From contig NZ_MSIF01000034.1 of NCBI RefSeq assembly GCF_001921215.1, forward strand, positions 1-64,000: DNA of 64,000 nucleotides, read 5' to 3'. Shown piece by piece: positions 18,449 to 31,535 of this stretch. The first letter of the stretch is position 1; the number at the start of each line of letters is the position of its first letter. The position numbers and the translations under genes were made by a program. The notes under the pieces were generated by a model. The model was not told the origin of the DNA, did not search any database, and was given only the letters and a program-made list of their open reading frames with translations. Source of the DNA: Actinophytocola xinjiangensis (GTDB lineage: Bacteria > Actinomycetota > Actinomycetes > Mycobacteriales > Pseudonocardiaceae).

Positions 18449-19402
18449 ATGACCGCTGTACCTCGAACTCGAAACCGGCTGGGTAGAGGGCTTCTCGTCT
18501 CCGCGATGAGCCTCGTACTCGGTGCGGGAGTGGCCCTGACAGCGCCCGCCACGGCAAGCGCCGAGACCCTTCCCGGGGAATGGGCCCCGTTCGGCGACTG
18601 TCCGGTGGACGCACCGGCGATGCTCGCCGCCGACGGCAGCACGGTGGTCGCCACCTGCATGTCGGGCGCGATTCCGAACGGCACGATCACCCTCGGCACG
18701 GGAACCATGCCGGTCGGCGCCGTGAACTTCTCCTTCGGCGTGCTCAACCAGAGCGGCGTGTACTCGGCCGTGGCGCCGGCCAACGGCGGCCTGACCGGTG
18801 ACTCGGTCACGGTGCCCGGCGGCATGCTCGGGCTGATGTGTCCCAGTGACATCCCGGTCATCTCCGACATCTGCGACGCGGTCGTCGACAGCAACCTGAA
18901 CACCGTGACCGCGACGATGGAGGCGGCCGGCCCGCCGAGGGACTTCGACTTCTCGGCGGCGGCCACCGTCGGCCGGCCGATCATGACGATGCCGGTGAAG
19001 ATCCGGTTGAAGAACCCGTTCCTGCGGTCCAGCTGCTACATCGGCTCCAACAGCAACCCGATCCTGCTGAAGGTGGCCAACACGGTGCAGCCCCGCCCGG
19101 CGTTCAGCAGGTTCAACGCGGACGGCACGCCGAACGCGACGGGTGAGATGAACATGCTCACCCTCAGCGGCGGCATCCTCAACGACAGCACGTTCGCGGT
19201 CCCCGCCGCGAAGGGCTGTGACTTCGTCGGCCTGATCGACATGGTGCTCAACGCGCGTCAGGGCCTGCCGGCCTCGTCCGGGACCAACAGCCTCACCCTG
19301 AACAACGCCACGTTCAAGCTCGCCGGGTTCCAGAATCCGCGGGCGCACGTGCCCAACCAGGGCCGGGTGCTCTCCGAGCGCTGGCACGCGGCGGCCGGCT
19401 GA
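18449..19402 (+). CDS. Secreted protein of unknown function
   Basis: 317 residues with a long n-region signal peptide (about 1-38, ending TASA), then a mature domain starting ETLPGEWAPFGDCPVD. It contains Cys residues in pairs typical of an exported disulfide-bonded fold (FGDC, VATC, LMC, DIC, SSC, KGC). I do not recognise a named family, although similar secreted proteins occur in filamentous actinobacteria. ATG 18449 has AGGAG 8 nt upstream; the in-frame GTG at 18443 is too close to that site. It is followed by a 15-bp hairpin terminator. Position between paralogs suggests a shared cell-surface role. Confidence 0.7.
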   Translation: MTAVPRTRNRLGRGLLVSAMSLVLGAGVALTAPATASAETLPGEWAPFGDCPVDAPAMLAADGSTVVATCMSGAIPNGTITLGTGTMPVGAVNFSFGVLNQSGVYSAVAPANGGLTGDSVTVPGGMLGLMCPSDIPVISDICDAVVDSNLNTVTATMEAAGPPRDFDFSAAATVGRPIMTMPVKIRLKNPFLRSSCYIGSNSNPILLKVANTVQPRPAFSRFNADGTPNATGEMNMLTLSGGILNDSTFAVPAAKGCDFVGLIDMVLNARQGLPASSGTNSLTLNNATFKLAGFQNPRAHVPNQGRVLSERWHAAAG

Positions 19403-19417
19403 CCCCGTCCTCTGATT

Positions 19418-19460
19418 CGGGCACCGACCCGCACCGAGGCGTCTTCGGTGCGGGTCGGTC
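19418..19460 (+). terminator. Hairpin terminator, copy 1 of a 43-bp repeat
   Basis: ACCGACCCGCACCGA and its perfect complement form a 15-bp stem with a 7-nt loop (19423-19459). The surrounding 43 bp are identical to 20096-20138. Confidence 0.8.
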
Positions 19461-19479
19461 GCTCGATGGAAGGAGTGAG

Positions 19480-20082
19480 ATGCGCGAGCTGTTCCTGCGG
19501 GTCATGACCGTCGTCGTGCTCGCCTCGGTCGTGCTCGGTACCGGATCCGCTGCCGCGGCCGGCGCGGGCTGGACGGTGTCTCCCGGCGGCTCCACCAGTG
19601 GCGACGCGTCGCAGGTCATCCTGACCATACGGCCGGCCGACGGCAGTGCCGATCCGGTCTTCGACTGTGTTCCGTCCCAGGTGGACATCGCCATGTTCAG
19701 CTCCCCGGACAGCCATGTCGGTGACGTCACCGACGTCGTCCTGAGCGACTGTCTGTTGGCCGGGTTGTACAACCTCGAGATCACCGTGGGCACACCCCTG
19801 TCGTTCCACGCGTTGGACTACGCCAGCCCGGTCGTGTCCGGCGAGCTGCGCGACTTCTTCGCCTCTGTGGTGTTCCCCGGCTGCTGGGCCGTGGTGGAGG
19901 GGTTCGTGCCGGTCACCTACGACAACAGCACTCACGAGTTGCGCCTGATCCCCGAGTTCACGCTGGAGTTCACCCACGTGGACCCGGTGGACAACTGTCT
20001 GGGGATCTTCAACGAGGGCGACAAGATGGCTCTCGAAGCCGTCTACGACCTCGCGCCCGGCCAGGCGATCGTGCCTGCCTGA
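19480..20082 (+). CDS. Secreted four-cysteine protein, paralog 3
   Basis: 200 residues, third member of the family at 15546 and 16250. Signal peptide (about 1-27), mature GWTVSPGGSTSG, four cysteines in the contexts FDC, SDC, PGC and DNC, FTHVDPVDNCLGIFNEGD and a C-terminal AIVPA. It is more divergent than paralogs 1 and 2 are from each other. SD GGAAGGAG about 7 nt before the ATG. The gene is bracketed by two identical hairpin terminators, so it is a single-gene transcription unit unless there is read-through. Function unknown. Confidence 0.8.
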   Translation: MRELFLRVMTVVVLASVVLGTGSAAAAGAGWTVSPGGSTSGDASQVILTIRPADGSADPVFDCVPSQVDIAMFSSPDSHVGDVTDVVLSDCLLAGLYNLEITVGTPLSFHALDYASPVVSGELRDFFASVVFPGCWAVVEGFVPVTYDNSTHELRLIPEFTLEFTHVDPVDNCLGIFNEGDKMALEAVYDLAPGQAIVPA

Positions 20083-20095
20083 GGGGCGAGGACAC

Positions 20096-20138
20096 CGGGC
20101 ACCGACCCGCACCGAGGCGTCTTCGGTGCGGGTCGGTC
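20096..20138 (+). terminator. Hairpin terminator, copy 2 of the 43-bp repeat
   Basis: Base-for-base copy of 19418-19460, with the same 15-bp stem and 7-nt loop (20101-20137), 14 nt after the stop of paralog 3. It also lies downstream of the convergent regulator gene at 20209 and could serve both strands. Confidence 0.8.
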
Positions 20139-20208
20139 ACGCCGGACGGGGGCTCGCGACCGCACCCGAGCCCGCCGCCCGGCGCTTGACCGGCGGCGCC
20201 CGTCGGCG

Positions 20209-21441
20209 CTACCGGCGTTCCCGGTTCCTGGGGGCCGGCACCACCGGCGCTGCCCTGGGCTTGGGCGCCGCGCGCAGGACCAGTTCCAGCTCGAACCGTT
20301 GGGTGGGGTCGTGCAGCAGGTCGCCGAAGGAGACCTCCAGCTGGCGCATCCGGTAGCGGACGGTCTGCGGGTGCACGCCCAGCTGGGTGGCCATGTCGGG
20401 GACGCTGCCCCGGGTGTCCAGCCACGCCCGCAGCGTCTCCAGGGTGCGTTCGCGCTGTTTGACCGTCAGGCTGGCCAGCGGGGTCATCAGCTTGTCCCGC
20501 AACGTGTCCAGCAGCAGCTCGTCGGAGTGCACGAGCACGGTCGACAGGTGCTGTTCGCAGCGGATGACCAGGCCGTCGGTGATCGAGCCCTGTTGGGCCA
20601 GCGACAGCGCCTTGCGGGCCCAGCGCAGCGCGAAGACCGCGGTGTCCAGCCGCACGCACGGGCCGACCGACAGCCGGCACCCTGGCAGCGCGGCGCGGAT
20701 GGCGGCCAGCCGCGTGTCGGTGACCGTGCCGGGGACCAGGAGCTTGGGCTCGATGCCGTCCAGGTCGGCCAGGACGTCGTTGTCCAGGGTGGGTTTGCGC
20801 TGGTTGTGGCCGGTGCCGGGCAGCGAGTGCACGGCGATCGGGGTGGCCTGCTTTGGCACCGGCCAGCCGATCAGCTGGGCCAGCTCGGCGATCGCGGCCG
20901 GCGGCGCGGCGGGGGTTTGCAGGATCATCCCGAGCAGGCGGCGCCGCCAGGTCTCCAGGGCGCCGGCGGAGGTGGCCTTGGCCTCCAGGTAGCCGTCGAG
21001 CGCGACCGAGGCGAGCGTGTCCATGTAGGCGAACACCGCGTCGGCCAGCTGCGACATGACCGACGACGACAGCCCGTTGCGCTTGCCGACGCGCATCATC
21101 CGCCGCCACGACACCCGGGCGCCGACGCGGTAGGCGGCCTGCAGGTCGTCGAGCGAGCGGCCCTCACGCATCTCGTTCTGGCCCAGCTTGTGGTGCACGT
21201 CGTGGCACTTCTGGGCTGAGGTGTCGGGGTTGGCGATCTGTTCGATGAACAGGCTGGTCGCGTGCTGCACCCCGGCGCGGATGGACTTGCCGTACGGGCC
21301 GTCGAGTGGGCGTGCGTAGGCGGGGATCTTGGCCCGGATCTCGTCCACGATCTCGGTGGCGAGGCTCGCCAGCTCCGGCCGGAGGATGTCGGCGAGCCTC
21401 CTGGGTAAGGCACCGCCGTCGAGTCGGTACTCAACCGTCAT
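20209..21441 (-). CDS. PucR-type transcriptional regulator
   Basis: 410 residues. The C-terminus (about 320-380) is a PucR-type HTH: LETLRAWLDTRGSVPDMATQ followed by LGVHPQTVRYRMRQLE, where the recognition helix reads HPQTVRYRM. The N-terminal ~200 residues are helical and resemble the RsbRD-like domain of many actinobacterial PucR proteins; the middle has a GGDEF-like PucR region. No ligand can be named. ATG at 21441 has GAGGAG 7 nt upstream; the longer frame to 21528 lacks a good start. It is divergent from the imuA' SOS cassette, and a 6-bp inverted repeat at 21572 lies in the shared upstream region. Confidence 0.85.
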   Translation of the reverse strand: MTVEYRLDGGALPRRLADILRPELASLATEIVDEIRAKIPAYARPLDGPYGKSIRAGVQHATSLFIEQIANPDTSAQKCHDVHHKLGQNEMREGRSLDDLQAAYRVGARVSWRRMMRVGKRNGLSSSVMSQLADAVFAYMDTLASVALDGYLEAKATSAGALETWRRRLLGMILQTPAAPPAAIAELAQLIGWPVPKQATPIAVHSLPGTGHNQRKPTLDNDVLADLDGIEPKLLVPGTVTDTRLAAIRAALPGCRLSVGPCVRLDTAVFALRWARKALSLAQQGSITDGLVIRCEQHLSTVLVHSDELLLDTLRDKLMTPLASLTVKQRERTLETLRAWLDTRGSVPDMATQLGVHPQTVRYRMRQLEVSFGDLLHDPTQRFELELVLRAAPKPRAAPVVPAPRNRERR

Positions 21442-21571
21442 GCACAACTCCTCGTCACCACCACGCGCCGTCGAGGGTGGCAATCTGCGTATCGGTTCCG
21501 TGACCCGAAATGTGACACCTGGGCGCAAGAAACTGACGGAATCGTTGTCTCGTTGCTAGTTGTCGAACGAA

Positions 21572-21590
21572 GTTGTCCCCCGGTGACAAC
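21572..21590. promoter_or_regulatory. Inverted repeat in the pucR/imuA' intergenic region
   Basis: GTTGTC and GACAAC (perfect 6-bp arms, 7-nt spacer) lie between the divergent starts and 21 nt from the LexA box. Candidate operator for the PucR-type regulator; unproven. Confidence 0.35.
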
Positions 21591-21610
21591 GGTCCGAGGC
21601 CATGATAGTA

Positions 21611-21626
21611 TCGAACAGGCGTTCGA
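21611..21626. promoter_or_regulatory. LexA (SOS) box upstream of imuA'
   Basis: TCGAACAGGCGTTCGA is a perfect match to the actinobacterial SOS box TCGAAC-N4-GTTCGA, 52 nt before the imuA' start. It should be bound by LexA and released after DNA damage. Confidence 0.92.
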
Positions 21627-21677
21627 GATTGGTGCTGCCTTCCCCGCGGCGCGTGCGGAGCGGTAGGGGAGGGCGTT

Positions 21678-22475
21678 GTGCGAATGCCGGCGTTGGGTGC
21701 ATCGCTGGCCACTTCCGGTGCGGTGGGAGTGGCCAGCGACCTGACCTCCACGCCGTCGGGGCTGCCCGTTCGCCCCGACCTGGCTGGACTGTTCCCCTTC
21801 GGGGTGTTGCGTCGCGGTGGCACCGTGTCGGTGCGCGGGTCGACGTCGCTGCTGCTGTCCCTGCTCGCCGAACCAACCGCTCAGGACTCGTGGGCGGCTG
21901 TCGTCGGCCTGCCCGACCTGGGAGTGGTGGCCGCCGCCGAACTGGGAGTGGCGGTGGACCGGGTGGCGCTGGTGCGAGACCCCGGGGCGTCGGTGGCCTC
22001 GGTCGTCGCGGCGCTGCTCGACGGGATGGACCTCGTCGTCGTGGCGCGGGGGCGGCTGCCGGACGCGCAGGCCCGGCGGTTGTCGGCGCGGGCCCGCCAT
22101 CGGGGGGCCGTGCTGTTGACACCTGACGAATGGCCCGGGGTGGATGTCGAGTTGCGTTGCGTGGGAAGCGAATGGGCCGGGGTGGGGGCGGGAGAGGGGT
22201 ATCTGGCGGGGCGGGAGGTGGACGTTCGGTCCCGGGGGCGGGGGGTTGCCGCCCGGGGCGGGCGGGTGGTGGTTCGGGTTCCTGGCGGGAGGGGGCCGGT
22301 GGCTCGCGCGCGGGCTCCCGGACGGTTTGTCGTGGGTTCTCGCCACCAGCGATTTCCACGCGGGGTGATGGCGAGGAGGCTCGCATTGACACCGCTCGAA
22401 ATCGAACGTAAGTTCGAAACATGGATGGCGCCGCGCAGCGCATGCTTGTCGTGTGGTGTCCCGACTGGCCGGTGA
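21678..22475 (+). CDS. imuA': ImuA'-like RecA-fold protein of the SOS mutasome
   Basis: 265 residues. Resembles the actinobacterial ImuA', a RecA/SulA-type fold with a degenerate P-loop: LRRGGTVSVRGSTSLLLSLL sits where Walker A would be and lacks the GK[ST]. ImuA' is needed for damage-induced mutagenesis with ImuB and DnaE2. Identity rests on this pattern plus the imuB and dnaE2 genes directly downstream and the SOS box upstream. GTG 21678 has GGGAGG 5 nt upstream; ATG 21684 is an alternative. The 3' end (residues about 165-265) is Arg/Gly-rich, less conserved, and runs 55 nt into imuB, carrying the second LexA box. Confidence 0.8.
   Translation: MRMPALGASLATSGAVGVASDLTSTPSGLPVRPDLAGLFPFGVLRRGGTVSVRGSTSLLLSLLAEPTAQDSWAAVVGLPDLGVVAAAELGVAVDRVALVRDPGASVASVVAALLDGMDLVVVARGRLPDAQARRLSARARHRGAVLLTPDEWPGVDVELRCVGSEWAGVGAGEGYLAGREVDVRSRGRGVAARGGRVVVRVPGGRGPVARARAPGRFVVGSRHQRFPRGVMARRLALTPLEIERKFETWMAPRSACLSCGVPTGR
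22402..22417. promoter_or_regulatory. LexA (SOS) box upstream of imuB, inside imuA'
   Basis: TCGAACGTAAGTTCGA is a second perfect SOS palindrome, ending 3 nt before the ATG at 22421. It implies an independent LexA-controlled promoter for imuB-dnaE2, probably with a very short or no leader. Confidence 0.9.
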
Positions 22476-23980
22476 CCGCCGCGAGTTCCCACCACTCCCC
22501 GGGGGATCCGCTCGCGGTGGTCACCGCCACCCTTGTCGTCGCCGCCAACGCTGTTGCCCGGGCGGAAGGTGTTCGGCGCGGGATGCGGCGGCGGGAGGCC
22601 CAGGGCCGCTGTCCCACGCTCGTCGCCCTTCCCGACGATCCTGACCGGGACGCCCGGCTGTTCGAACCGGTCGCCGCCGCCGTCGAGGAGCTGGCGGTGG
22701 GGGTCGAGATCATTCGGCCGGGGATCGTGGCCGTGCCGGCGCGGGGGCCGGCGGGGTACTTCGGGACCGAGGAGAGCGCCGCCGAGAGGATCATCGACCG
22801 GGTCGCGGAACGCACCGGCGCCGAGTGCCAGGTCGGCATCGCCGACACCCTGTTCGCGGCGGTGCTGGCGGCGAAGAAGGGGCTGCTGGTCGGGGAGACC
22901 ACGGAGTTCCTGGCGCCGTTGAGCGTTCGGGAGCTGCACCGGCCCGCCGAGGGGCAGGACCGGGCCGAGCTCGTCGATCTGTTGCGACGGCTGGGGCTGC
23001 GCACGTTGGGGGCGTTCGCCGCGCTCCCCGAACGGGACGTCGCCGGGCGGTTCGGGGCGGACGCCGTCCTGGCCCATCGGCTGGCTTCCGGGCGGCAGGA
23101 GCGGCCGTTGGCCCGCCGCCGGCCACCGCCCGATCTGACGATCTCCGACACGTTCGACCCGCCGGTCGACCGGGTCGACACGGCCGCGTTCGTGGCCAGG
23201 ACGCTCGCCGAACGCCTGCACAACGCGCTCGCCGCCCACGGGCTGGCCTGTACCCGGCTCGGGATCCACGCCGCGACCGCCGCCGGGCAGGAGCGGGAAC
23301 GCGTGTGGCGGTGCGCCGAACCGCTGACCCCCGCCGGGCTCGCGGACCGGGTCCGCTGGCAGCTCGACGGGTGGCTGCGCGACGCCCGCCTGTCCGCCGG
23401 CGTCGCCACCCTCGCCCTCACCCCGGTCGAGGTCATCGACGGGACCACCCTCCAGCTCGACCTGTGGCGCGGCGAGGGCCGGGCCGAGGCCGACGAGCGG
23501 GCCGCCCGCGCCATGGTCCACGTCCAGGGGCTGCTGGGGCCCGACGCCGTCGTCACCCCGGTGCTGGGCGGCGGTCGGGGGCCGGGCGAACGGGTCCGGT
23601 ACGTGCCGTGGGGGGACGAGCGCACGCCGGCCGCCGATCCGGACGCGCCGTGGCCGGGGGCCCTGCCGGCGCCGTCGCCGGCCACGATTCCGCGGACACC
23701 CCTGCCGGCCCGGTTGACCGACGACGACGGGCGGCCGGTCGCGGTCACCGGGCGCGACGAGCTGACCGGGCGGCCGGCGATGCTCGCCCTCCCCGGGCGC
23801 GCCGCCCGGCCCGTTCTCGGGTGGGCCGGGCCGTGGACGGCCGACGAACGGTGGTGGGTCCACTCCCGCCGCCGCAGCCGGCTCCAGGTCGTCCTCGAAG
23901 AGTCCGAAAAGGACACCCAGACCGCGCTTCTCCTCGTTCTGGCCGACGAGAAGTGGACCGTAGAAGGGATCTACGACTGA
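22421..23980 (+). CDS. imuB: ImuB, Y-family polymerase-like mutasome subunit
   Basis: 519 residues. N-terminal MLVVWCPDWPVTAA is the ImuB signature, followed by palm/fingers homology, a little-finger-type region and a C-terminal extension; ImuB proteins lack the full catalytic triad of DinB and serve as the hub linking DnaE2 and ImuA' to the sliding clamp. ATG 22421 follows the LexA box by 3 nt, so the mRNA may be leaderless; ATG 22442, which begins exactly at MLVVWCPDW, is the alternative and has no better SD. The stop overlaps the next small ORF as TGATG. Induced by DNA damage, acting at the replication fork. Confidence 0.9.
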   Translation: MDGAAQRMLVVWCPDWPVTAASSHHSPGDPLAVVTATLVVAANAVARAEGVRRGMRRREAQGRCPTLVALPDDPDRDARLFEPVAAAVEELAVGVEIIRPGIVAVPARGPAGYFGTEESAAERIIDRVAERTGAECQVGIADTLFAAVLAAKKGLLVGETTEFLAPLSVRELHRPAEGQDRAELVDLLRRLGLRTLGAFAALPERDVAGRFGADAVLAHRLASGRQERPLARRRPPPDLTISDTFDPPVDRVDTAAFVARTLAERLHNALAAHGLACTRLGIHAATAAGQERERVWRCAEPLTPAGLADRVRWQLDGWLRDARLSAGVATLALTPVEVIDGTTLQLDLWRGEGRAEADERAARAMVHVQGLLGPDAVVTPVLGGGRGPGERVRYVPWGDERTPAADPDAPWPGALPAPSPATIPRTPLPARLTDDDGRPVAVTGRDELTGRPAMLALPGRAARPVLGWAGPWTADERWWVHSRRRSRLQVVLEESEKDTQTALLLVLADEKWTVEGIYD

Positions 23981-24099
23981 TGCCCCGCGACCAGTGGCCC
24001 TGCCGCGAATGCCGCCCCCGTGACGGCGGCTGTCGCCAGTGCCTCGCACCGCTCATCCCCGCGCCGCGCCGGTCACCGGAGAACGCCCGGACCCGCTGA
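23980..24099 (+). CDS. 39-residue Cys4 microprotein between imuB and dnaE2
   Basis: Short frame whose ATG shares one base with the imuB stop (TGATG) and whose TGA shares one base with the dnaE2 ATG (TGATG). It thus fills the gap between the two genes exactly. The product contains C8-x2-C11-x6-C18-x2-C21 within WPCRECRPRDGGCRQC, a pattern that would suit zinc binding, followed by a basic Pro/Arg tail. I do not recognise it as a named family. Translational coupling on both sides and the Cys pairs argue for a real gene; its shortness and the lack of a separate SD argue for caution. If real it would be SOS-induced with ImuB and DnaE2. An alternative is that dnaE2 starts at GTG 24039 and this frame is incidental. 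Confidence 0.5.
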   Translation: MPRDQWPCRECRPRDGGCRQCLAPLIPAPRRSPENARTR

Positions 24100-27000
24100 T
24101 GGGCTGGAACAACCCACCGGTCAGCTGGACCGAGCTGGAACGCGTCCTGTCCGGGCGCCCGCCCGGCACCACCCGGGGCGACGGCGGCGACGCCCCGGCC
24201 TGGACCGCCCGCCGCGAGCGCTACACCGCCCCGGCCGGCGGCGGCACCCCCGAGTCGACCGACCTCGCCGGCGCCGACACCCGCACCCCCTACGCCGAAC
24301 TGCACTGCCACTCCAACTTCAGCTTCCTCGACGGCGCCAGCCACCCCGAGGAACTCGTCGAGGCCGCCTCGCTGCTCGACCTCGACGCGCTCGCCATCAC
24401 CGACCACGACGGCATGTACGGGGTCGTCCGCTTCGCCGAGGCCGCCCGCGAACTCGGCGTGCGCACCGTCTTCGGCGCCGAACTGTCCCTCGGCCTGACC
24501 CGCCCGCAGAACGGGGTCGCCGACCCGGAGGGCGAACACCTGCTGCTGCTGGCCAGAGGCACCGACGGCTACGCCGACCTGTGCCGCGCCATCACCACCG
24601 GCCAGCTCGCCGACACCGGCGAGAAGGGCCGCCCGGTCCACGACCTCGCCGCCGTCGCCGAGCAGACCCGCGACGAGTGCGTCGTGCTCACCGGCTGCCG
24701 CAAGGGCGCGGTCCGGGCGGCGTTGCTGCGCGACGGGCCGGCCGCGGCCGGCGAACAACTGCGCCGCCTGGTCGAGCTGTTCGGCCGCGACAGTGTCCAC
24801 GTCGAGCTGATCGACCACGGCCGCCCGCTGGACACCACGCACAACGACCTGCTGGCCGCCATGGCCGCCGAACTGGCGCTGCCGGTCGTGGCGACCAACG
24901 CCGTGCACTACGCCCAACCCAACCGGGGCGACCTGGCCGCCGCCATCGCCGCCGTCCGGGCCCGGCGTTCGCTCGACGAGCTCGACGGGTGGCTGCCGCC
25001 CGCGCCGACCGCGCACCTGCGCTCCGGCGCCGAGATGGCCCGCCGTTTCGCCCGCTACCCCGGCGCCGTGCACCGGGCCGCGATGCTCGGGCTGGAGCTG
25101 GCGTTCGACCTGCGGTGGGTGGCGCCCGAGCTGCCGCGTTTCGACCTGCCCGGCCACACCGAGATCAGCTACCTGCGGGAGAAAACCCTGGCCGGCGCCC
25201 GCACCCGCTACGGCACCCGCGCCGACAACCCGAAGGCCTACGCCCAGCTCGACCACGAACTGACCGTCATCGGCGAACTGAACTTCCCCGGCTACTTCCT
25301 GATCGTCTCCGACATCGTCGACTTCTGCCGCCGCAACGGGATCTACTGCCAGGGCAGGGGATCGGCGGCCAACTCGGCGGTCTGCTACGCGCTGGGCATC
25401 ACCCGGGTGGACGCCGTGAAGTGGGAGCTGCTGTTCGAGCGGTTCCTCGCCCCGGCGCGGGACGGCCCGCCGGACATCGACCTGGACATCGAGTCCGACC
25501 GCCGCGAGGAGGTCATCCAGTACGTCTACCGGCGCTACGACCGCCGGCACGCCGCGCAGGTCGCCAACGTCGTGTCCTACCGGGCCCGCTCGGCCGTGCG
25601 GGACATGGCCCGCGCGCTGGGTTACTCGCCAGGCCAGCAGGACGCGTGGAGCAAGCAGATCGACCGCTGGGGCCCCGTGAAGTCCACAGTGGACGAACAC
25701 GATCACGAGATTCCGGTGCAGGTGCTCGAACTCGCCGGCCAGCTGGAGGAGTTCCCGCGCCACCTCGGCATCCACTCCGGCGGCATGGTGATCTGCGACC
25801 GCCCGGTCAGCGAGGTCTGCCCGGTCGAGCGGGCCAGGATGGCCGACCGCACCGTGTTGCAGTGGGACAAGGACGACTGCGCCGCCGCCGGGCTGGTGAA
25901 GTTCGACCTGCTGGGCCTTGGCATGCTCTCCGCCCTGCGGTACATGGTCGAGCTGGTCGCCGAACACCAGGGCGTCGAGGTGAACATCGACGACCTCGAC
26001 CTGGCCGACGAGAAGGTCTACGCGATGCTCCAGCGCGCCGACTCGGTCGGGGTGTTCCAGGTGGAGAGCCGCGCGCAGATGGCGACCCTGCCCCGGCTGC
26101 GCCCGGAGACGTTCTACGACCTGGTCGTCGAGGTCGCACTGATCCGCCCCGGCCCCATCCAGGGCGGCTCGGTGCACCCCTACATCCGCCGCGCCAGGGG
26201 CCGCGAGCAGGTCACCTACGACCATCCGCTGCTGGAGAAGGCACTGCGCAAGACCAAGGGCGTGCCGCTGTTCCAGGAACAGCTCATGCAGATGGCCGTC
26301 GACGTCGCCGACTTCACCCCCGCCGAGGCCGACGAACTGCGCCGCGCCATGGGCGCCAAACGCTCGACCCGCCGGATGGAACGCCTGCGCGAACGCTTCT
26401 ACGCCGGCGCCGCCGGCCACGGCATCGACGGCGAACTGGCCAGCCGCATCTACGACAAGCTCATGGCCTTCGCCAACTTCGGCTTCCCGGAGAGCCACGC
26501 GCTCAGCTTCGCCTACCTGGTCTTCGCCAGCGCCTGGTTCAAGCTCTACCACCCGGCCGCGTTCTGCGCGGCCCTGCTGCGCGCCCAGCCCATGGGCTTC
26601 TACTCCCCGCAGTCCCTGGTGGCCGACGCCCGCCGCCACGGCGTCACCGTCCTGGGCCCCGACCTCAACGCCAGCCTCCCGTACGCCACCCTCGAACCGC
26701 TCCCGGACGGCGAGTTCGCCGTGCGGCTGGGCCTGGCGGCGGTCCGGTCGATCGGCGACGGGGTGGCCGAGCGGGTGGTCGCCGAGCGGGCGGCCGGGCC
26801 GTACCGGGACATGGCGGACCTGGCCAGGCGGGTGGGGCTCACCCGCGCGCAGCTGGAGGCGCTGTCGACGGCCGGGGCGTTCGGCTGCTTCGGGCTGGCG
26901 CGGCGGGCGGCGCTGTGGGCGTCGGGCGCGGTGGCCGGCGAGCGGCCCGACCGGCTGCCCGGCACGACCGTCGGCGCGAACGCCCCCGCCCTGCCGGGGA

Positions 27001-27413
27001 TGAGCACGCTGGAGCTGGCGGTCGCCGACGTGTGGGCGACGGGTCTGTCCCCGGACACCTTCCCCACCGAGTTCGTCCGGGCCCGGCTGGACGAACTCGG
27101 CGCGCTGCCGGCCGCCCAACTGTCCACAGTGGAGGGCGGAACGCGGGTACTGGTCGGCGGCGCGGTGACCCACCGGCAGCGCCCGGCGACCGCCGGCGGG
27201 GTGACGTTCCTGAACCTGGAGGACGAGACCGGCATGATCAACGTGGTGTGTTCGCGCGGGCTGTGGTCGCGCTACAGCCGGATCGCGCGCAACTCCTCGG
27301 CGCTGCTGGTGCGGGGCATGCTCGAACGCGCGGACGGCGTGACCAGCCTGCTCGCCGACCACCTCGAACAACTCGACCTGAGCATTCCCGCGAAGTCCCG
27401 CGACTTCCGCTGA
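24099..27413 (+). CDS. dnaE2: Error-prone DNA polymerase DnaE2
   Basis: 1104 residues, C-family polymerase. PHP domain at the N-terminus (YAELHCHSNFSFLDGASHPE at about 65-84, ITDHDGMYG), palm with catalytic Asp pair in PDIDLDIE (about 458-465), the third Asp region in QWDKDDCAAAGLVKFDLLG (about 588-606), helix-hairpin-helix elements and an OB fold near the C-terminus (about 1000-1080). It is shorter than replicative DnaE1, as expected. DnaE2 copies damaged DNA with ImuB and ImuA'. ATG 24099 matches the usual DnaE2 N-terminus MGWNNPPVSW and gives TGATG coupling; GTG 24039 is in frame but less likely. Confidence 0.93.
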   Translation: MGWNNPPVSWTELERVLSGRPPGTTRGDGGDAPAWTARRERYTAPAGGGTPESTDLAGADTRTPYAELHCHSNFSFLDGASHPEELVEAASLLDLDALAITDHDGMYGVVRFAEAARELGVRTVFGAELSLGLTRPQNGVADPEGEHLLLLARGTDGYADLCRAITTGQLADTGEKGRPVHDLAAVAEQTRDECVVLTGCRKGAVRAALLRDGPAAAGEQLRRLVELFGRDSVHVELIDHGRPLDTTHNDLLAAMAAELALPVVATNAVHYAQPNRGDLAAAIAAVRARRSLDELDGWLPPAPTAHLRSGAEMARRFARYPGAVHRAAMLGLELAFDLRWVAPELPRFDLPGHTEISYLREKTLAGARTRYGTRADNPKAYAQLDHELTVIGELNFPGYFLIVSDIVDFCRRNGIYCQGRGSAANSAVCYALGITRVDAVKWELLFERFLAPARDGPPDIDLDIESDRREEVIQYVYRRYDRRHAAQVANVVSYRARSAVRDMARALGYSPGQQDAWSKQIDRWGPVKSTVDEHDHEIPVQVLELAGQLEEFPRHLGIHSGGMVICDRPVSEVCPVERARMADRTVLQWDKDDCAAAGLVKFDLLGLGMLSALRYMVELVAEHQGVEVNIDDLDLADEKVYAMLQRADSVGVFQVESRAQMATLPRLRPETFYDLVVEVALIRPGPIQGGSVHPYIRRARGREQVTYDHPLLEKALRKTKGVPLFQEQLMQMAVDVADFTPAEADELRRAMGAKRSTRRMERLRERFYAGAAGHGIDGELASRIYDKLMAFANFGFPESHALSFAYLVFASAWFKLYHPAAFCAALLRAQPMGFYSPQSLVADARRHGVTVLGPDLNASLPYATLEPLPDGEFAVRLGLAAVRSIGDGVAERVVAERAAGPYRDMADLARRVGLTRAQLEALSTAGAFGCFGLARRAALWASGAVAGERPDRLPGTTVGANAPALPGMSTLELAVADVWATGLSPDTFPTEFVRARLDELGALPAAQLSTVEGGTRVLVGGAVTHRQRPATAGGVTFLNLEDETGMINVVCSRGLWSRYSRIARNSSALLVRGMLERADGVTSLLADHLEQLDLSIPAKSRDFR

Positions 27414-27477
27414 TCGGCGGGATAACGGGTTGGTCGAGAGTCCCGTCGTCGCCCGGTAACGGTTCTAAGATGCGGTA

Positions 27478-27897
27478 ATGCCCGGGTTCGAGATCGGCAA
27501 GGATGGCCTTGCCGTCATCGTGGTCGGGATCGACGGCGGCGACCGCGCCCAACACGCCGCCGCCTGGGCCACCGGCCTGGCCCGCCGCGAACGCGCCCGC
27601 CTGGTCCTGGTCTACGTCGAACCGCTGACCAGCCCCGCCTACTGGTCGCCCTTCGGCATGGCCACCGCCGCCGAGGCGTCCGCCGAACTCGTCCAGGAGT
27701 TGCGGCACAACGCCGAGCAGTACCTCGACACCGCCGGCATCCGCTGGGAACTCGTCCACTACCGGGGCGACCCCGCGCAGGGCCTGGAGACCGTCGCCGA
27801 GGACCGGCGGGCCGACTGCATCGTCGTCGGCCGGGGCGCCGACGTGCCGAAGGTGCTGGTGAGCGAGGCCAGGCGACCGGTCGTGGTCGTTCCCTAG
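27478..27897 (+). CDS. Universal stress protein family
   Basis: 139 residues, single USP domain: beta-strand VIVVGIDGGDRA at the N-terminus (the Asp that usually contacts ATP) and the C-terminal ADCIVVGRGADVPKVLVSEA block followed by PVVVVP. The usual G-2x-G-9x-G(S/T) ATP loop is degenerate here, so nucleotide binding is uncertain. Preceded by GGTAACGG and AT-richer promoter-like DNA (27420-27477) and followed 9 nt later by the pentapeptide gene. Confidence 0.8.
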   Translation: MPGFEIGKDGLAVIVVGIDGGDRAQHAAAWATGLARRERARLVLVYVEPLTSPAYWSPFGMATAAEASAELVQELRHNAEQYLDTAGIRWELVHYRGDPAQGLETVAEDRRADCIVVGRGADVPKVLVSEARRPVVVVP

Positions 27898-27906
27898 AGT
27901 GCGGGT

Positions 27907-28503
27907 ATGGAACGTGACACCGACCAGAACGAGGACTACCGAGACGCCGTCCTGCCCCACCAGCACTGGACCGACCGGCGGTTCGTCCACTGCGCGTTCA
28001 CCGACGCCGACCTGCGCGGGCTGACCACCAACGGCTGCGTCTTCGAGGACTGCGACTTCAGCAAGGCCGACCTCGGCGAGTCCCGGCACACCGCCACCGC
28101 GTTCCGCAACTGCCTGTTCCGCGCCACGACCCTCACCGAGACCGAGTTCAGCGCGTGCAGCCTGGTCGGCTCGACGTTCGTCGACTGCCGGTTCCGGCCG
28201 TGGAAGATCACCGACACCGACCTGACGCTGGCCAGCCTCAGCGAGGCCAACCTGCGCAAGACCACGCTCGCCGGGCTGCGGCTGCGGGAGGCGAACCTGA
28301 TCGGCGCCGACCTGCGCGACGCCGACCTCACCGGCACCGACCTGCGCGGCGCCAGGCTCGCCGACACCCGGCTCGCCGGCGCCGACCTGCGCGGCGCGCG
28401 GCTGGACGCCAGCGGCCTGACCCAGGCCAAGCTCGCCGGCGCCGTCGTCGACCTGGACACGGCGGTCGCGTTCGCCGCCGCGCACGGCCTGCGGATCGGC
28501 TGA
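27907..28503 (+). CDS. Pentapeptide-repeat protein
   Basis: 198 residues made of A(D/N)LxX-type pentapeptides across almost the whole length, for instance ADLRGLTTNG, ANLIGADLRDADLTGTDLRG. This predicts a right-handed quadrilateral beta-helix. Some actinobacterial members (MfpA) mimic DNA and protect gyrase from fluoroquinolones, but there is no MfpA-specific feature that lets me claim that here. It follows the stress-protein gene at 9 nt and is convergent with the TNT gene. Confidence 0.85.
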   Translation: MERDTDQNEDYRDAVLPHQHWTDRRFVHCAFTDADLRGLTTNGCVFEDCDFSKADLGESRHTATAFRNCLFRATTLTETEFSACSLVGSTFVDCRFRPWKITDTDLTLASLSEANLRKTTLAGLRLREANLIGADLRDADLTGTDLRGARLADTRLAGADLRGARLDASGLTQAKLAGAVVDLDTAVAFAAAHGLRIG

Positions 28504-28504
28504 G

Positions 28505-28524
28505 CGGCCCCCGTCCGGGAGCCG
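28505..28524. terminator. Short bidirectional hairpin between convergent genes
   Basis: CGGC-C-CCCG and CGGG-A-GCCG pair across a 2-nt loop with one mismatch in the 36-nt gap between the convergent pentapeptide and TNT genes. Confidence 0.45.
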
Positions 28525-28538
28525 CCCAGCCGCCACAC

Positions 28539-31535
28539 TCAGGCCGGTGGCCGTTCCCGGCCGTTGACCTCCACGATCCGCCCGGTCGCCAGCAGGTCGT
28601 CGATGGCGTCCGGCAGCAGGTAGGCGGTGCCGCCACCCGGCTGGTCGAACCACGGGATGGCGGTGCCGGTCAGCACCCGCACCGGCTCGCGCACCCGGTA
28701 GGCGTGGTACGGCCGGTCCACCCATTCGGGCACCAGCGACCGCTCGTGGAACGGGGTGCCGACCGCGTAGGCCAGGTTCCCGTCGTTCTCACCGAACCGG
28801 TCCAGCTCGGTGCCCGGCTCCAGCTCGACGAGCCGCTTGCCGCGGAACAGGGTCAGCGGCGGCTCACCGGGCAGTGGGCTGATCGGCCACTCCTGGTTCC
28901 CGCCACCCGATGATCCACCCGACGAACCGCCTGACGATCCGCCGCTCGGCGAGCCGCCGACGGCCGGGCGGGACGCCGGTGCGGCGATCGTGGTCGGCGG
29001 CTCGGCCACCGGCTCACGCCGGGCCGGCTCGGACCGGAACGTCGTGCCGACGGCCGCCGTGTCCACGCGGGTCGGCTCCAGGCCGGCGTTGTTCAGCCCG
29101 TGGTCGAGCCCGCTGTCCAGGCCGCTGTCCAGTCCGCTGTCCAGCCCGGTGCCCAGGCCGGAGTCCAGCCCGGACTCCGACCGGCTCCGGCGCGACACCG
29201 GCTCGGCCGGCTCGGCGCGCCGGCCGTCGAACCCGTGCTCGGACCGCGAGTCCACCAGCGGCTCGGCGTGCCGGGGGTCCACCGCCGGCTCGACCCTGGT
29301 CGGCTCGAACGCGGCCTCCGCGCGCCGCCCCCGGTCGAAACCGTTCTCCTGGTGGCGGGACTCGAAGGACCGCTCGGCGTGGTCGAACCCGTTCTCGCGC
29401 GGCGACTCGAACGACGTGTCGGCCGGCTCGAACCCGTTGTCGGTGTGCCGGGGCTCCTCGGAACGCGGCGGCGTGAACGACGACTCGAACGACGGCTCGA
29501 ACGAGGGCTCGAATTTGGGTTCGAAACTCGACTCGGCCGGCTCGAACGTCGGCTCGAAACTCGACTCCGACCGTTCGAAGCCTCGGTCGAACCCGTTCTC
29601 CGCACTCCGGTCCGCGTGCCGGGACTCCGAGTTCCGGTCCGGGCTCCGGTCCGCGTGGCGGTCCGAATGGCGGGGCTCGAACGACTGCTCCGCGTGGTCG
29701 AACCCGTTCTCCCGCCGCGGCTCGAACGACTGGGCCGGCTCGAACGACTGGGCCGGCTCGAACGACTGCGCCGGTTCGAACGACTGGGCCGGTTCGAAGG
29801 GCTGGCGGGGCTGGTCGACGTGCGGCGTCTCGAACTCGTCGGTCTGCCGGGGGTCGAAGTCGACCAGGTCCGACCGGCGGGGCTCCTGGCGGGGCGGCTC
29901 GAACTCGTCCAGGCCGCCCAGCCCGTCCCGGGCCTCGCGGCGCTCGAAGGCCGGGTCCGGCTCGAACGGGATCTCCGCGTGCCGTGACTCGGCGGCCGGC
30001 TCCGGCTCGGAGCGACGCGGCTCGAAGACCGAGTCCGGCCGGGAGAAGTCCTGGCGTCGGGGCGGTTGCGCCGGCGGGTGCGACCGGGTCGTCGCGTCCG
30101 CGCCGTCGAAGTCGAACGGCGGGCGGGGCGAGTCCGGGCGGAACGCCGGGGCCGAACCGTTGGCCAGGGCGAAGTCACCCGGGTCCTCGGCCGGCGGCGC
30201 GACCGGTGCCGGGGCGACCGGCGCCCCGGCGCCCGCCTGCCAGCGGTCGGCGTCGAGCAGCAGCTTGCCCAGCAGGAACGCCGACGCGTCGGCGACGTCC
30301 TCGAACATGGCCGGGGCGACGAACTCGCGGTCGAACCAGCCGACCCGCCAGCCGTCCTCGGTCTGGTCCATCGTCCACGCCCGGCCGGCGGGCGGGCCGA
30401 TCCGGAACGCGGTCGGCGGGATGCCCAGGTCGTCCAGGCGGGTCCGCAGCGCGTCGACCGTCCGCCCGGGCGGGCCCTGCGAGGGCAGCGCGGCCGGCGG
30501 CGGACCACCGGCGGGCTGCGACACCGGCTGCGACACCGGCGGTGCCACGGGTGGCGACACGGGCTGCGGCGGTGCCGAGGGCGGGGGCACCGGCAACGCC
30601 CGGGTGGGCGCTGGTGCACCGGGCGCCTGCCCGGCCGGTGCACCGGACTGGTTCGGCGTGCCAGGAGGCGGGCCGGGTGGTGTGCCCGGTGGCCTCGGCG
30701 GGCCGCCGGGTCCGGCGCCCTGGCCGAGGAACGCCGCCGCGGCCGAGCGGGTCTGGTCGTCCACCAGCGGCGGACGGAAACCCGCCCGCACGACGTGTTC
30801 CACCAGATCTGTTTCCGGTGGGACGTCGTGCTCACGCAGGTAGTAGTTGACCGCCGCCGGCCAGATCCAGGTGCCATCGGTGTGGAAGGCGACCGGCACG
30901 GCCGGACGCGCGTCCGGGTCGAACCGGTCGAGGTCGAAACCCCGGCCCGGGCCGACGACCGGCGCGTTGTCCAGGTACTTCAACAGGTCCGCGACGTCGT
31001 CGGCGTCCACCGGCGGGCGGTTGACCGCCGGCCGGCCGCCGTCGACCGGCGGGCCGTCGAAGATCCGCGCCACGCGGAAGCGTGGCGGCGGGGGCGGCGC
31101 GGAGGACAGCCGGCGGCGCAGCCAGTCCGGCACGTTGTCCTCGGTTCTCGGGAACAGCCGCATGTCGTCCGGGTAGGCCTGCGGGGGAGGCGGGGAGTCC
31201 CACCTCGGCTCCTCGCGGTCGTACTCCAGGTTGTAGCTGGACGGGTGGTCGAGGCGGTACCTGGCGTTGAACCAGGTGCCCCGCCCCTCCCGGTACATCC
31301 CGCCACGCAGTCGTGCGAACAGCCCCTGCAGATCGGTCGGCATCGTCCACGTCTCCGACGTCGCGTCGGAGAAGACGACCTGGGCGGTCGCCTCCGAGTA
31401 ACGGCCTACCGCCCGGTAGTCGACGGTCAACTGCTCCCAGTCGTCGGGCGCCACCCGCAGCATCGCCAGCCCGATCTGCTTGACCAGGGCGTCCTGCTCG
31501 GTCGGGGTTAGCTGGGTCGGTTGTGCCACGCTCAC
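28539..31535 (-). CDS. Large TNT-domain (NAD glycohydrolase toxin-like) protein
   Basis: 998 residues. The last ~110 residues match the TNT domain (toxin of mycobacterial CpnT): GTELDRFGENDGN, the PYHAYRV block and WFDQPGGGTAYLLP, which hold the Arg, His and Gln equivalents of the known active site. The N-terminal half has up to three globular segments (about 10-110, 185-275, 365-440) reminiscent of immunity-like or SUKH-type folds and Pro-rich linkers; about 440-850 is low-complexity with FEP- and DSGL-type repeats. No signal peptide or ESX motif is evident, so export is unclear. GTG 31535 is chosen; GTG 31529 is possible. No gene recognisable as the IFT immunity partner lies beside it. TNT enzymes hydrolyse NAD+; activity here is inferred from conserved residues. 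Confidence 0.8.
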   Translation of the reverse strand: MSVAQPTQLTPTEQDALVKQIGLAMLRVAPDDWEQLTVDYRAVGRYSEATAQVVFSDATSETWTMPTDLQGLFARLRGGMYREGRGTWFNARYRLDHPSSYNLEYDREEPRWDSPPPPQAYPDDMRLFPRTEDNVPDWLRRRLSSAPPPPPRFRVARIFDGPPVDGGRPAVNRPPVDADDVADLLKYLDNAPVVGPGRGFDLDRFDPDARPAVPVAFHTDGTWIWPAAVNYYLREHDVPPETDLVEHVVRAGFRPPLVDDQTRSAAAAFLGQGAGPGGPPRPPGTPPGPPPGTPNQSGAPAGQAPGAPAPTRALPVPPPSAPPQPVSPPVAPPVSQPVSQPAGGPPPAALPSQGPPGRTVDALRTRLDDLGIPPTAFRIGPPAGRAWTMDQTEDGWRVGWFDREFVAPAMFEDVADASAFLLGKLLLDADRWQAGAGAPVAPAPVAPPAEDPGDFALANGSAPAFRPDSPRPPFDFDGADATTRSHPPAQPPRRQDFSRPDSVFEPRRSEPEPAAESRHAEIPFEPDPAFERREARDGLGGLDEFEPPRQEPRRSDLVDFDPRQTDEFETPHVDQPRQPFEPAQSFEPAQSFEPAQSFEPAQSFEPRRENGFDHAEQSFEPRHSDRHADRSPDRNSESRHADRSAENGFDRGFERSESSFEPTFEPAESSFEPKFEPSFEPSFESSFTPPRSEEPRHTDNGFEPADTSFESPRENGFDHAERSFESRHQENGFDRGRRAEAAFEPTRVEPAVDPRHAEPLVDSRSEHGFDGRRAEPAEPVSRRSRSESGLDSGLGTGLDSGLDSGLDSGLDHGLNNAGLEPTRVDTAAVGTTFRSEPARREPVAEPPTTIAAPASRPAVGGSPSGGSSGGSSGGSSGGGNQEWPISPLPGEPPLTLFRGKRLVELEPGTELDRFGENDGNLAYAVGTPFHERSLVPEWVDRPYHAYRVREPVRVLTGTAIPWFDQPGGGTAYLLPDAIDDLLATGRIVEVNGRERPPA
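29719..29790 (-). repeat. Four 18-nt tandem repeats in the TNT gene
   Basis: Four consecutive 18-nt units (GGCTCGAACGACTGGGCC with one or two substitutions) encode SFEPAQ hexapeptides on the minus strand. Degenerate FE-rich copies spread over 29500-30000. Confidence 0.85.

What the first reader, a model, noticed from the sequence alone, without database searches (positions are those of the whole stretch)
23980..24099. Cys4 microprotein embedded in the SOS mutasome operon
A 39-codon frame sits exactly between imuB and dnaE2 with TGATG overlaps at both ends and encodes CxxC-x6-CxxC plus a basic tail, a zinc-binding-like pattern. I know of no described fourth component encoded here. If translated it would be SOS-induced with ImuB and DnaE2 and could be a small accessory or regulator of the mutasome.
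Basis: partly seen in the sequence, partly recalled or inferred. Interest (0 to 1): 0.8.

Follow-up and report, generated by a model that had tools for sequence, protein, structure and literature searches.

The report
Conserved microprotein in SOS mutasome operon
A tiny gene of 39 codons lies between two genes that soil actinomycetes are thought to switch on to copy damaged DNA with errors, and relatives keep its short tail motif, so it is probably a real, overlooked extra part of that mutation machinery, although the zinc-like cysteines that drew attention to it are a local variation.

Summary
The 39-codon frame at 23980-24099 is real. It is the Actinophytocola member of an unnamed microprotein family encoded directly after imuB in Pseudonocardiaceae. 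Of 84 distinct ORFs coupled to an imuB stop, 82 carry [IVL]P-x-[PQ]-R (consensus LIPxPRRSPEN), against a mean of 1.8 of 82 in codon shuffles and 0 and 2 in other frames. dN/dS is 0.15 (window vs A. gossypii) and 0.34 pooled. Two perfect SOS boxes precede imuA' and imuB; 41 of 42 relatives have one. The gene stays with imuB in three Kutzneria loci with dnaE2 3-15 kb away; it lies beside 0 of 10 and 1 of 36 dnaE2 copies without detected adjacent imuB, the one being an assembly gap in imuB. None of 29 other-family junctions has it. So a fourth component is supported. Cys4 is not the family signature: cysteines occur in 4 of 5 Actinophytocola members, spacing differs, and A. oryzae lacks them. Best reading: a disordered, SOS-linked, ImuB-associated accessory peptide. 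Translation, binding and function are inferred; structure prediction could not be completed.

The parts
21611..21626 (+). perfect SOS (LexA) box TCGAACAGGCGTTCGA upstream of imuA'
   Evidence: pattern scan, 0 mismatches; 16 matches at up to 2 mismatches in the window against 2.97 expected; the consensus is recalled from actinobacterial LexA work
21678..22475 (+). imuA' (265 aa)
   Evidence: NCBIfam NF058630 'DnaE2-dependent mutagenesis accessory factor ImuA'', 1.7e-51
22402..22417 (+). second perfect SOS box TCGAACGTAAGTTCGA, inside the 3' end of imuA' and just before imuB
   Evidence: 8 of 42 micro-bearing relatives have a box within -80..+30 of the imuB start
22421..23980 (+). imuB (519 aa), Y-family polymerase homologue with a C-terminal region matching ImuB relatives
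   Evidence: Pfam PF00817 IMS 2.7e-17; alignment with relatives; ImuB-C as described in PMC12926913 (passages)
23980..24099 (+). microprotein gene (39 aa), TGATG overlaps at both ends
24001..24042 (+). four-cysteine stretch C8, C11, C18, C21 (C-x2-C-x6-C-x2-C); module seen only in Actinophytocola, shorter here than in three relatives
24055..24084 (+). codons of the family core IPAPRRSPEN (residues 26-35)
   Evidence: invariant P and R in the 82 core-bearing distinct sequences
24099..27413 (+). dnaE2 (1104 aa), start ATG 24099
   Evidence: NCBIfam NF004225, E = 0; conserved N-terminus

Best explanation
[quoted passage not shown] Shown by sequence: it lies between imuB and dnaE2 in an operon with LexA-type boxes, overlaps the imuB stop, is under purifying selection on its amino acids, and is linked to imuB rather than dnaE2. 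Inferred: after DNA damage it is made in step with ImuB and docks on it (most likely the C-terminal ImuB-C barrel, which others model as the contact for DnaE2 and ImuA') through its C-terminal IPxPRRSPEN core, while the variable, usually acidic N-terminal part contacts a second partner or shields it, so that it tunes assembly or life-time of the complex. In Actinophytocola the N-terminal part carries a four-cysteine module that may bind zinc; in this genome the module is shortened.
For: Core [IVL]P.[PQ]R in 49 of 50 coupled ORFs (90 family loci taken, the window's among them; 71 with imuB detected adjacent; 17 of 28 genera) and 47 of 48 in named loci (80 loci, 61 with imuB found). Two further members lie outside my coupling window or behind an assembly gap (L249, L134). 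The 82 core-bearing distinct sequences compare with a mean of 1.8 in codon shuffles and 0 and 2 in other frames; the invariant Arg uses CGN and AGR codons. dN/dS 0.115 A. gossypii/A. xanthii, 0.149 window/A. gossypii, 0.34 pooled over 12 pairs. Microprotein rows fall in one clade of the DnaE2 tree (51 rows, SH-aLRT 98; midpoint root), fewest changes 4. It follows imuB in three Kutzneria loci with dnaE2 3.2, 3.3 and 15.3 kb from the imuB stop. Beside dnaE2 copies without detected adjacent imuB: 0 of 10 and 1 of 36, that one directly after an imuB end cut off by an assembly gap. Core kept in 7 distinct members with dnaE2 100 nt or more downstream. SOS box with at most one mismatch in 41 of 42.
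Against: No translation, binding or phenotype data. Dispensable: an exact loss in Lentzea nigeriaca restores direct imuB-dnaE2 overlap, and Saccharomonospora piscinae and one MAG lack it. Seven of seven imuB genes of genus g28, several kb from dnaE2, lack it, as do two imuB copies beside second dnaE2 copies (G157, which is a Kutzneria, and G193). Two coupled ORFs (L131, L276) lack the core; both have dnaE2 far downstream and neither was placed on the tree. Outside the core the sequence is very variable (21 to 217 aa), one pooled pair (L097/L104) shows no constraint (2 synonymous, 8 nonsynonymous), and one long pair supplies 163 of the 651 pooled codons. Profile comparison found no resemblance to ImuB and no convincing match among solved structures, so the partner site is a guess. 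The intended AlphaFold test failed.
Confidence: 0.6

Rival explanations
1. It is a translational spacer or leader: only the act of translating it matters, coupling imuB to dnaE2, and its C-terminal codons supply a ribosome-binding site (the SPEN codons give GGAG) for dnaE2.
For: TGATG overlaps at both ends; many relatives end within a few bases of the dnaE2 start; the Glu/Asp position uses GAG in 42 of 81 rows.
Against: Core kept in 7 distinct members with dnaE2 at least 100 nt away and in Kutzneria with dnaE2 3-15 kb away, although two coupled ORFs with distant dnaE2 (L131, L276) lack it. An SD-like 4-mer lies 4-18 nt before dnaE2 in only 40 of 82. The invariant P and R lie upstream of the putative SD and vary at synonymous sites. 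L. nigeriaca and several other lineages overlap imuB and dnaE2 directly without it.
Confidence: 0.15
2. It is a zinc-binding Cys4 microprotein whose metal site is the functional centre.
For: Cysteines kept in 4 of 5 Actinophytocola members; the alignment allows all four to be homologous if two in-frame deletions happened; the segment FVIGHP[DN]PVCVAGY is shared by three relatives.
Against: A. oryzae has the same core without cysteines. The A. gossypii protein matched 2 of 80 family genomes at E <= 0.01, both Actinophytocola (that search also missed the window's shortened copy). Spacing is not kept in the window.
Confidence: 0.12
3. It is an inhibitor or brake on the mutasome (an anti-mutator peptide) rather than a subunit that helps it.
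For: Small, coupled to imuB, dispensable, fast-evolving, absent in several lineages.
Against: Nothing tested separates this from a positive role; the direction of effect cannot be seen in sequence.
Confidence: 0.1
4. Chance open frame in high-GC DNA with no product.
For: 67 ORFs of at least 30 aa overlap 19000-29500; GC3 of the frame (0.85) is below imuB (0.92) and dnaE2 (0.95), though above imuA' (0.80).
Against: Conservation and dN/dS as above.
Confidence: 0.03

Closest known systems
ImuA'-ImuB-DnaE2 mutasome (mycobacterial type)
   Same: Same three genes, LexA-type boxes, ImuB with a C-terminal region
   Different: The mycobacterial mutasome is described as minimally three proteins (PMC10421592: start of abstract in the listing, one passage); none of 29 other-family junctions of the order had a coupled ORF with the core
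UmuD' and YqjX/YolD small subunits of Y-family mutasomes
   Same: Small subunit encoded beside a Y-family protein; PMC12926913 (passages) describes small subunits related only by an unstructured N-terminal arm
   Different: UmuD' and YqjX have an SH3-type barrel (passages); this one is mostly 21-95 aa with no Pfam or NCBIfam match for the members tested; its fold was not predicted
Standalone ImuB-C
   Same: Accessory protein of DnaE2 systems
   Different: ImuB-C is a roughly 100-residue beta-barrel (PMC11791113 and PMC12926913, passages); the microprotein profile does not match ImuB

Membership tests
ImuA'-ImuB-DnaE2 operon | imuA', imuB, dnaE2 in order on one strand | tested here: met
ImuA'-ImuB-DnaE2 operon | LexA-type SOS box upstream | tested here: met
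   two perfect boxes; damage induction itself not testable here
New imuB-coupled microprotein family | start within about 5 nt of the imuB stop | tested here: met
   ATG overlaps the stop; criterion used
New imuB-coupled microprotein family | C-terminal core [IVL]P.[PQ]R | tested here: met
   LIPAPRRSPEN in the window; 82 of 84 distinct coupled ORFs
New imuB-coupled microprotein family | acidic N-terminus (common trait, not a defining one) | tested here: not met
   64 of 82 distinct sequences have at least 2 D/E in residues 2-6; the window and the three other Cys-bearing Actinophytocola members do not
Zinc-binding Cys4 proteins | conserved metal-ligand spacing | tested here: not met
   x2-x6-x2 in the window, x2-x6-x11 in relatives, absent in A. 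oryzae
Zinc-binding Cys4 proteins | binds zinc | not testable with these tools
   no biochemistry; no Pfam hit
UmuD/YolD small subunits | sequence or fold homology | tested here: inconclusive
   no Pfam/NCBIfam match, no convincing PDB match; fold not predicted

The most novel reading that the evidence does not exclude
A lineage-specific gene, born once at the imuB-dnaE2 junction in Pseudonocardiaceae, added a fourth, disordered subunit to the SOS mutasome that binds ImuB through a P-x-P-R core and sets how much error-prone synthesis occurs; in Actinophytocola it became a zinc- or redox-sensing version through an added Cys4 module.
Probability: 0.25. Interest if true: 0.8.

Novelty: new variant of a known kind. 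Interest (0 to 1): 0.62.

Why it matters
DnaE2 mutasomes drive damage-induced mutation in actinobacteria. The one recent survey of their partners that I checked worked from proteomes and gene neighbourhoods (PMC12926913, passages), where frames of 20-60 codons are easily missed (inference). A conserved fourth gene coupled to imuB gives a direct genetic handle on how mutasome assembly is tuned in genera such as Amycolatopsis, Saccharothrix and Lentzea. It also looks like a gene birth that can be placed on a tree, with a natural exact deletion (L. nigeriaca) as control.

Tried and rejected
Similarity of the core to ImuB's own segments: MAFFT placed microproteins on the ImuB segment RPPxRRRPPPEL, and by eye I also considered the segment LPAPSPATV. 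Profile comparison with ImuB alone gave probability 0.1 and E = 0.4, so mimicry of ImuB was dropped. The hit was the microprotein meeting itself inside a read-through row.

Origin of the Cys module elsewhere: the A. gossypii protein matched 2 of 80 family genomes, both Actinophytocola at this locus. Paralogues in the window's own genome: the profile found only the locus itself at E < 0.1.

RNA structure instead of peptide: fold z-score -1.84, 5 of 200 shuffles as low; weak, not pursued.

Remnant in G021/G059 (no dnaE2 orthologue, only residues 409-518 of ImuB, intact microprotein ORF, perfect SOS box). I first took it as strong evidence for an ImuB-C/micro pair, but the ImuB-C remnant differs at codon positions 1/2/3 by 6/4/7, which looks near-neutral, so I do not count it. 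The remnant dN/dS printed for that domain used a wrong frame and is discarded.

Rows dropped by hand before counts: L131 and L276, coupled ORFs without the core; I did not place them on the tree. L079, L162 and L176 reached contig ends. Eight of 80 named loci had too short a DnaE2 for the tree. One other-family locus (L185) matches the core only if its GTG start is read as Val; with Met it does not.

Full report
WHAT IS THERE. The frame 23980-24099 is real as described: 39 codons, ATG overlapping the imuB stop and TGA overlapping the dnaE2 ATG. The neighbours are imuA' (NF058630, 1.7e-51), imuB (PF00817, 2.7e-17) and dnaE2 (NF004225, E = 0). dnaE2 most likely starts at 24099: its N-terminus MGW.NPP is shared by all 11 rows aligned. 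Two perfect matches to the SOS box TCGAAC-N4-GTTCGA (consensus recalled) lie at 21611 and 22402. No Pfam or NCBIfam family matches the 39-mer.

SAME-GENUS RELATIVES. Five of six genomes of the genus have a dnaE2 match. In all five a coupled ORF follows imuB: A. gossypii 66 aa, A. xanthii 65 aa, one unnamed (G094) 65 aa, A. oryzae 34 aa, and the window 39 aa. All five carry LIPAPR.S.E[ND] near the end. The first three have C-x2-C-x6-C-x11-C; the window has C-x2-C-x6-C-x2-C, best explained by in-frame deletions (27 codons shorter than A. gossypii); A. oryzae has no cysteine. Window against A. gossypii gives dN/dS 0.149 (dS 1.11), and A. gossypii against A. xanthii 0.115, lower than for the last 110 codons of ImuB (0.29 and 0.30).

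FAMILY-WIDE. Of 200 genomes of the family searched, 175 had a dnaE2 match; I took 90 loci, the window's among them (30 loci and 60 regions). imuB was detected adjacent in 71. In 15 imuB and dnaE2 are under 30 nt apart, 13 of them overlapping as in TGATG; in 56 there is a gap of 30 nt or more, and in 50 of these an ORF of at least 20 codons starts within about 5 nt of the imuB stop. 49 of the 50 hold [IVL]P.[PQ]R, in 17 of 28 genera. A second, named set of 80 loci (the best 80 of a capped list) gave imuB in 61, a coupled ORF in 48 and the core in 47; 14 distinct sequences are shared with the first set, so the sets overlap. Together there are 84 distinct coupled ORFs, 82 with the core. I removed the two without it (L131, L276) by hand before further counts. 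Codon shuffling gives 1.8 of 82 on average (maximum 8 in 500), and the other two frames 0 and 2. At the invariant Arg all of CGC, CGG, AGA, AGG and CGA occur, so the amino acid, not the DNA, is kept.

ANATOMY. Length is 21 to 217 aa. The core starts 8-15 residues from the end in 70 of 82; the part before it is net negative in 74 of 82, and 64 of 82 have at least two acidic residues among residues 2-6. Between the two ends the sequence is very variable, which suggests two short contact motifs joined by a disordered linker (inference). Pooled dN/dS over 12 hand-chosen close pairs is 0.34, with one long pair giving 163 of 651 codons; the 24 pairs printed run from 0.065 to 1.24, the last from 10 differences.

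ORIGIN. In other families of the order, 54 loci were examined and imuB was found upstream in 29; 3 have a coupled ORF by my criterion and none of these has the core, one (L185) only because its GTG start counts as Met. On a DnaE2 tree of 73 rows the 47 microprotein rows fall in one clade of 51 (SH-aLRT 98, midpoint root), with fewest changes 4 when rows without imuB found are not counted: read as one gain and losses in Saccharomonospora piscinae, Lentzea nigeriaca and one MAG. In L. nigeriaca the loss is an exact deletion between two CTGATG copies that restores the direct TGATG overlap.

PARTNER. Where dnaE2 has moved away the microprotein stays with imuB in three loci: Kutzneria sp. 744 (dnaE2 3.2 kb from the imuB stop), G109 (3.3 kb) and G019 (15.3 kb). 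G019 and G109 are called Kutzneria because their genus code g20 is shared with G157, whose contig length equals that of Kutzneria sp. 744. Of second or isolated dnaE2 copies without detected adjacent imuB, 0 of 10 have a core ORF within 400 nt; in all such loci of both sets 1 of 36 does, and it lies directly after an imuB end interrupted by an assembly gap. Against: in g28 imuB is several kb from dnaE2 and has no microprotein in 7 of 7, and two imuB genes beside second dnaE2 copies (G157, G193) lack it. SOS boxes with at most one mismatch are upstream in 41 of 42 microprotein loci with enough sequence.

MECHANISM. Most likely the peptide is made with ImuB after DNA damage and binds it. Published models place ImuB-C against the DnaE2 PHP domain and ImuA' (PMC12926913, PMC11791113; passages), which makes ImuB-C the obvious docking surface. 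This step is inference. A read-through single-chain prediction was prepared (alignments A3, A6) but never ran to completion.

LITERATURE. In the listings of searches (titles and abstract starts, up to 20 papers each) I saw no paper describing a small ORF between imuB and dnaE2. The 2026 survey of bacterial polymerases (PMC12926913) and the mycobacterial mutasome paper (PMC10421592) were checked by term search only: no occurrence of Pseudonocardi or Amycolatopsis in either main text, and none of 'small protein' or 'hypothetical' in the survey. Supplements were not read, and papers outside the held library were not searched.

VERDICT.

Noticed in passing
window 22402-22417: A second perfect SOS box inside the end of imuA', directly before imuB; 8 of 42 relatives, all Actinokineospora or Actinophytocola, have one near the imuB start, suggesting an internal SOS promoter for imuB-micro-dnaE2.
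   Followed up: partly
L244, L246, L252, L110, L113: In several Amycolatopsis (and unnamed g16) loci the microprotein is 168-217 aa with repeated AEARSR-x-NHP-like units after the core.
   Followed up: no
L310, L311 (G021, G059): Genomes without a DnaE2 orthologue keep a perfect SOS box, a remnant of the ImuB C-terminal domain and an intact microprotein ORF; the remnant domain looks near-neutral.
   Followed up: partly
L046 / L207 (A. gossypii): A roughly 760-nt proline/alanine-rich stretch between microprotein and dnaE2; a 310-aa frame running through it starts inside the microprotein gene and ends in TGATG with dnaE2.
   Followed up: no
L326 (A. xanthii, second dnaE2): A second dnaE2 copy with no imuB detected in the 2.6 kb upstream and no microprotein candidate.
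   Followed up: partly
window 29485-29557: Four matches to the SOS box with one mismatch at short spacing, inside the repetitive 28539-31535 minus-strand ORF; probably repeat codons, not LexA sites.
   Followed up: no
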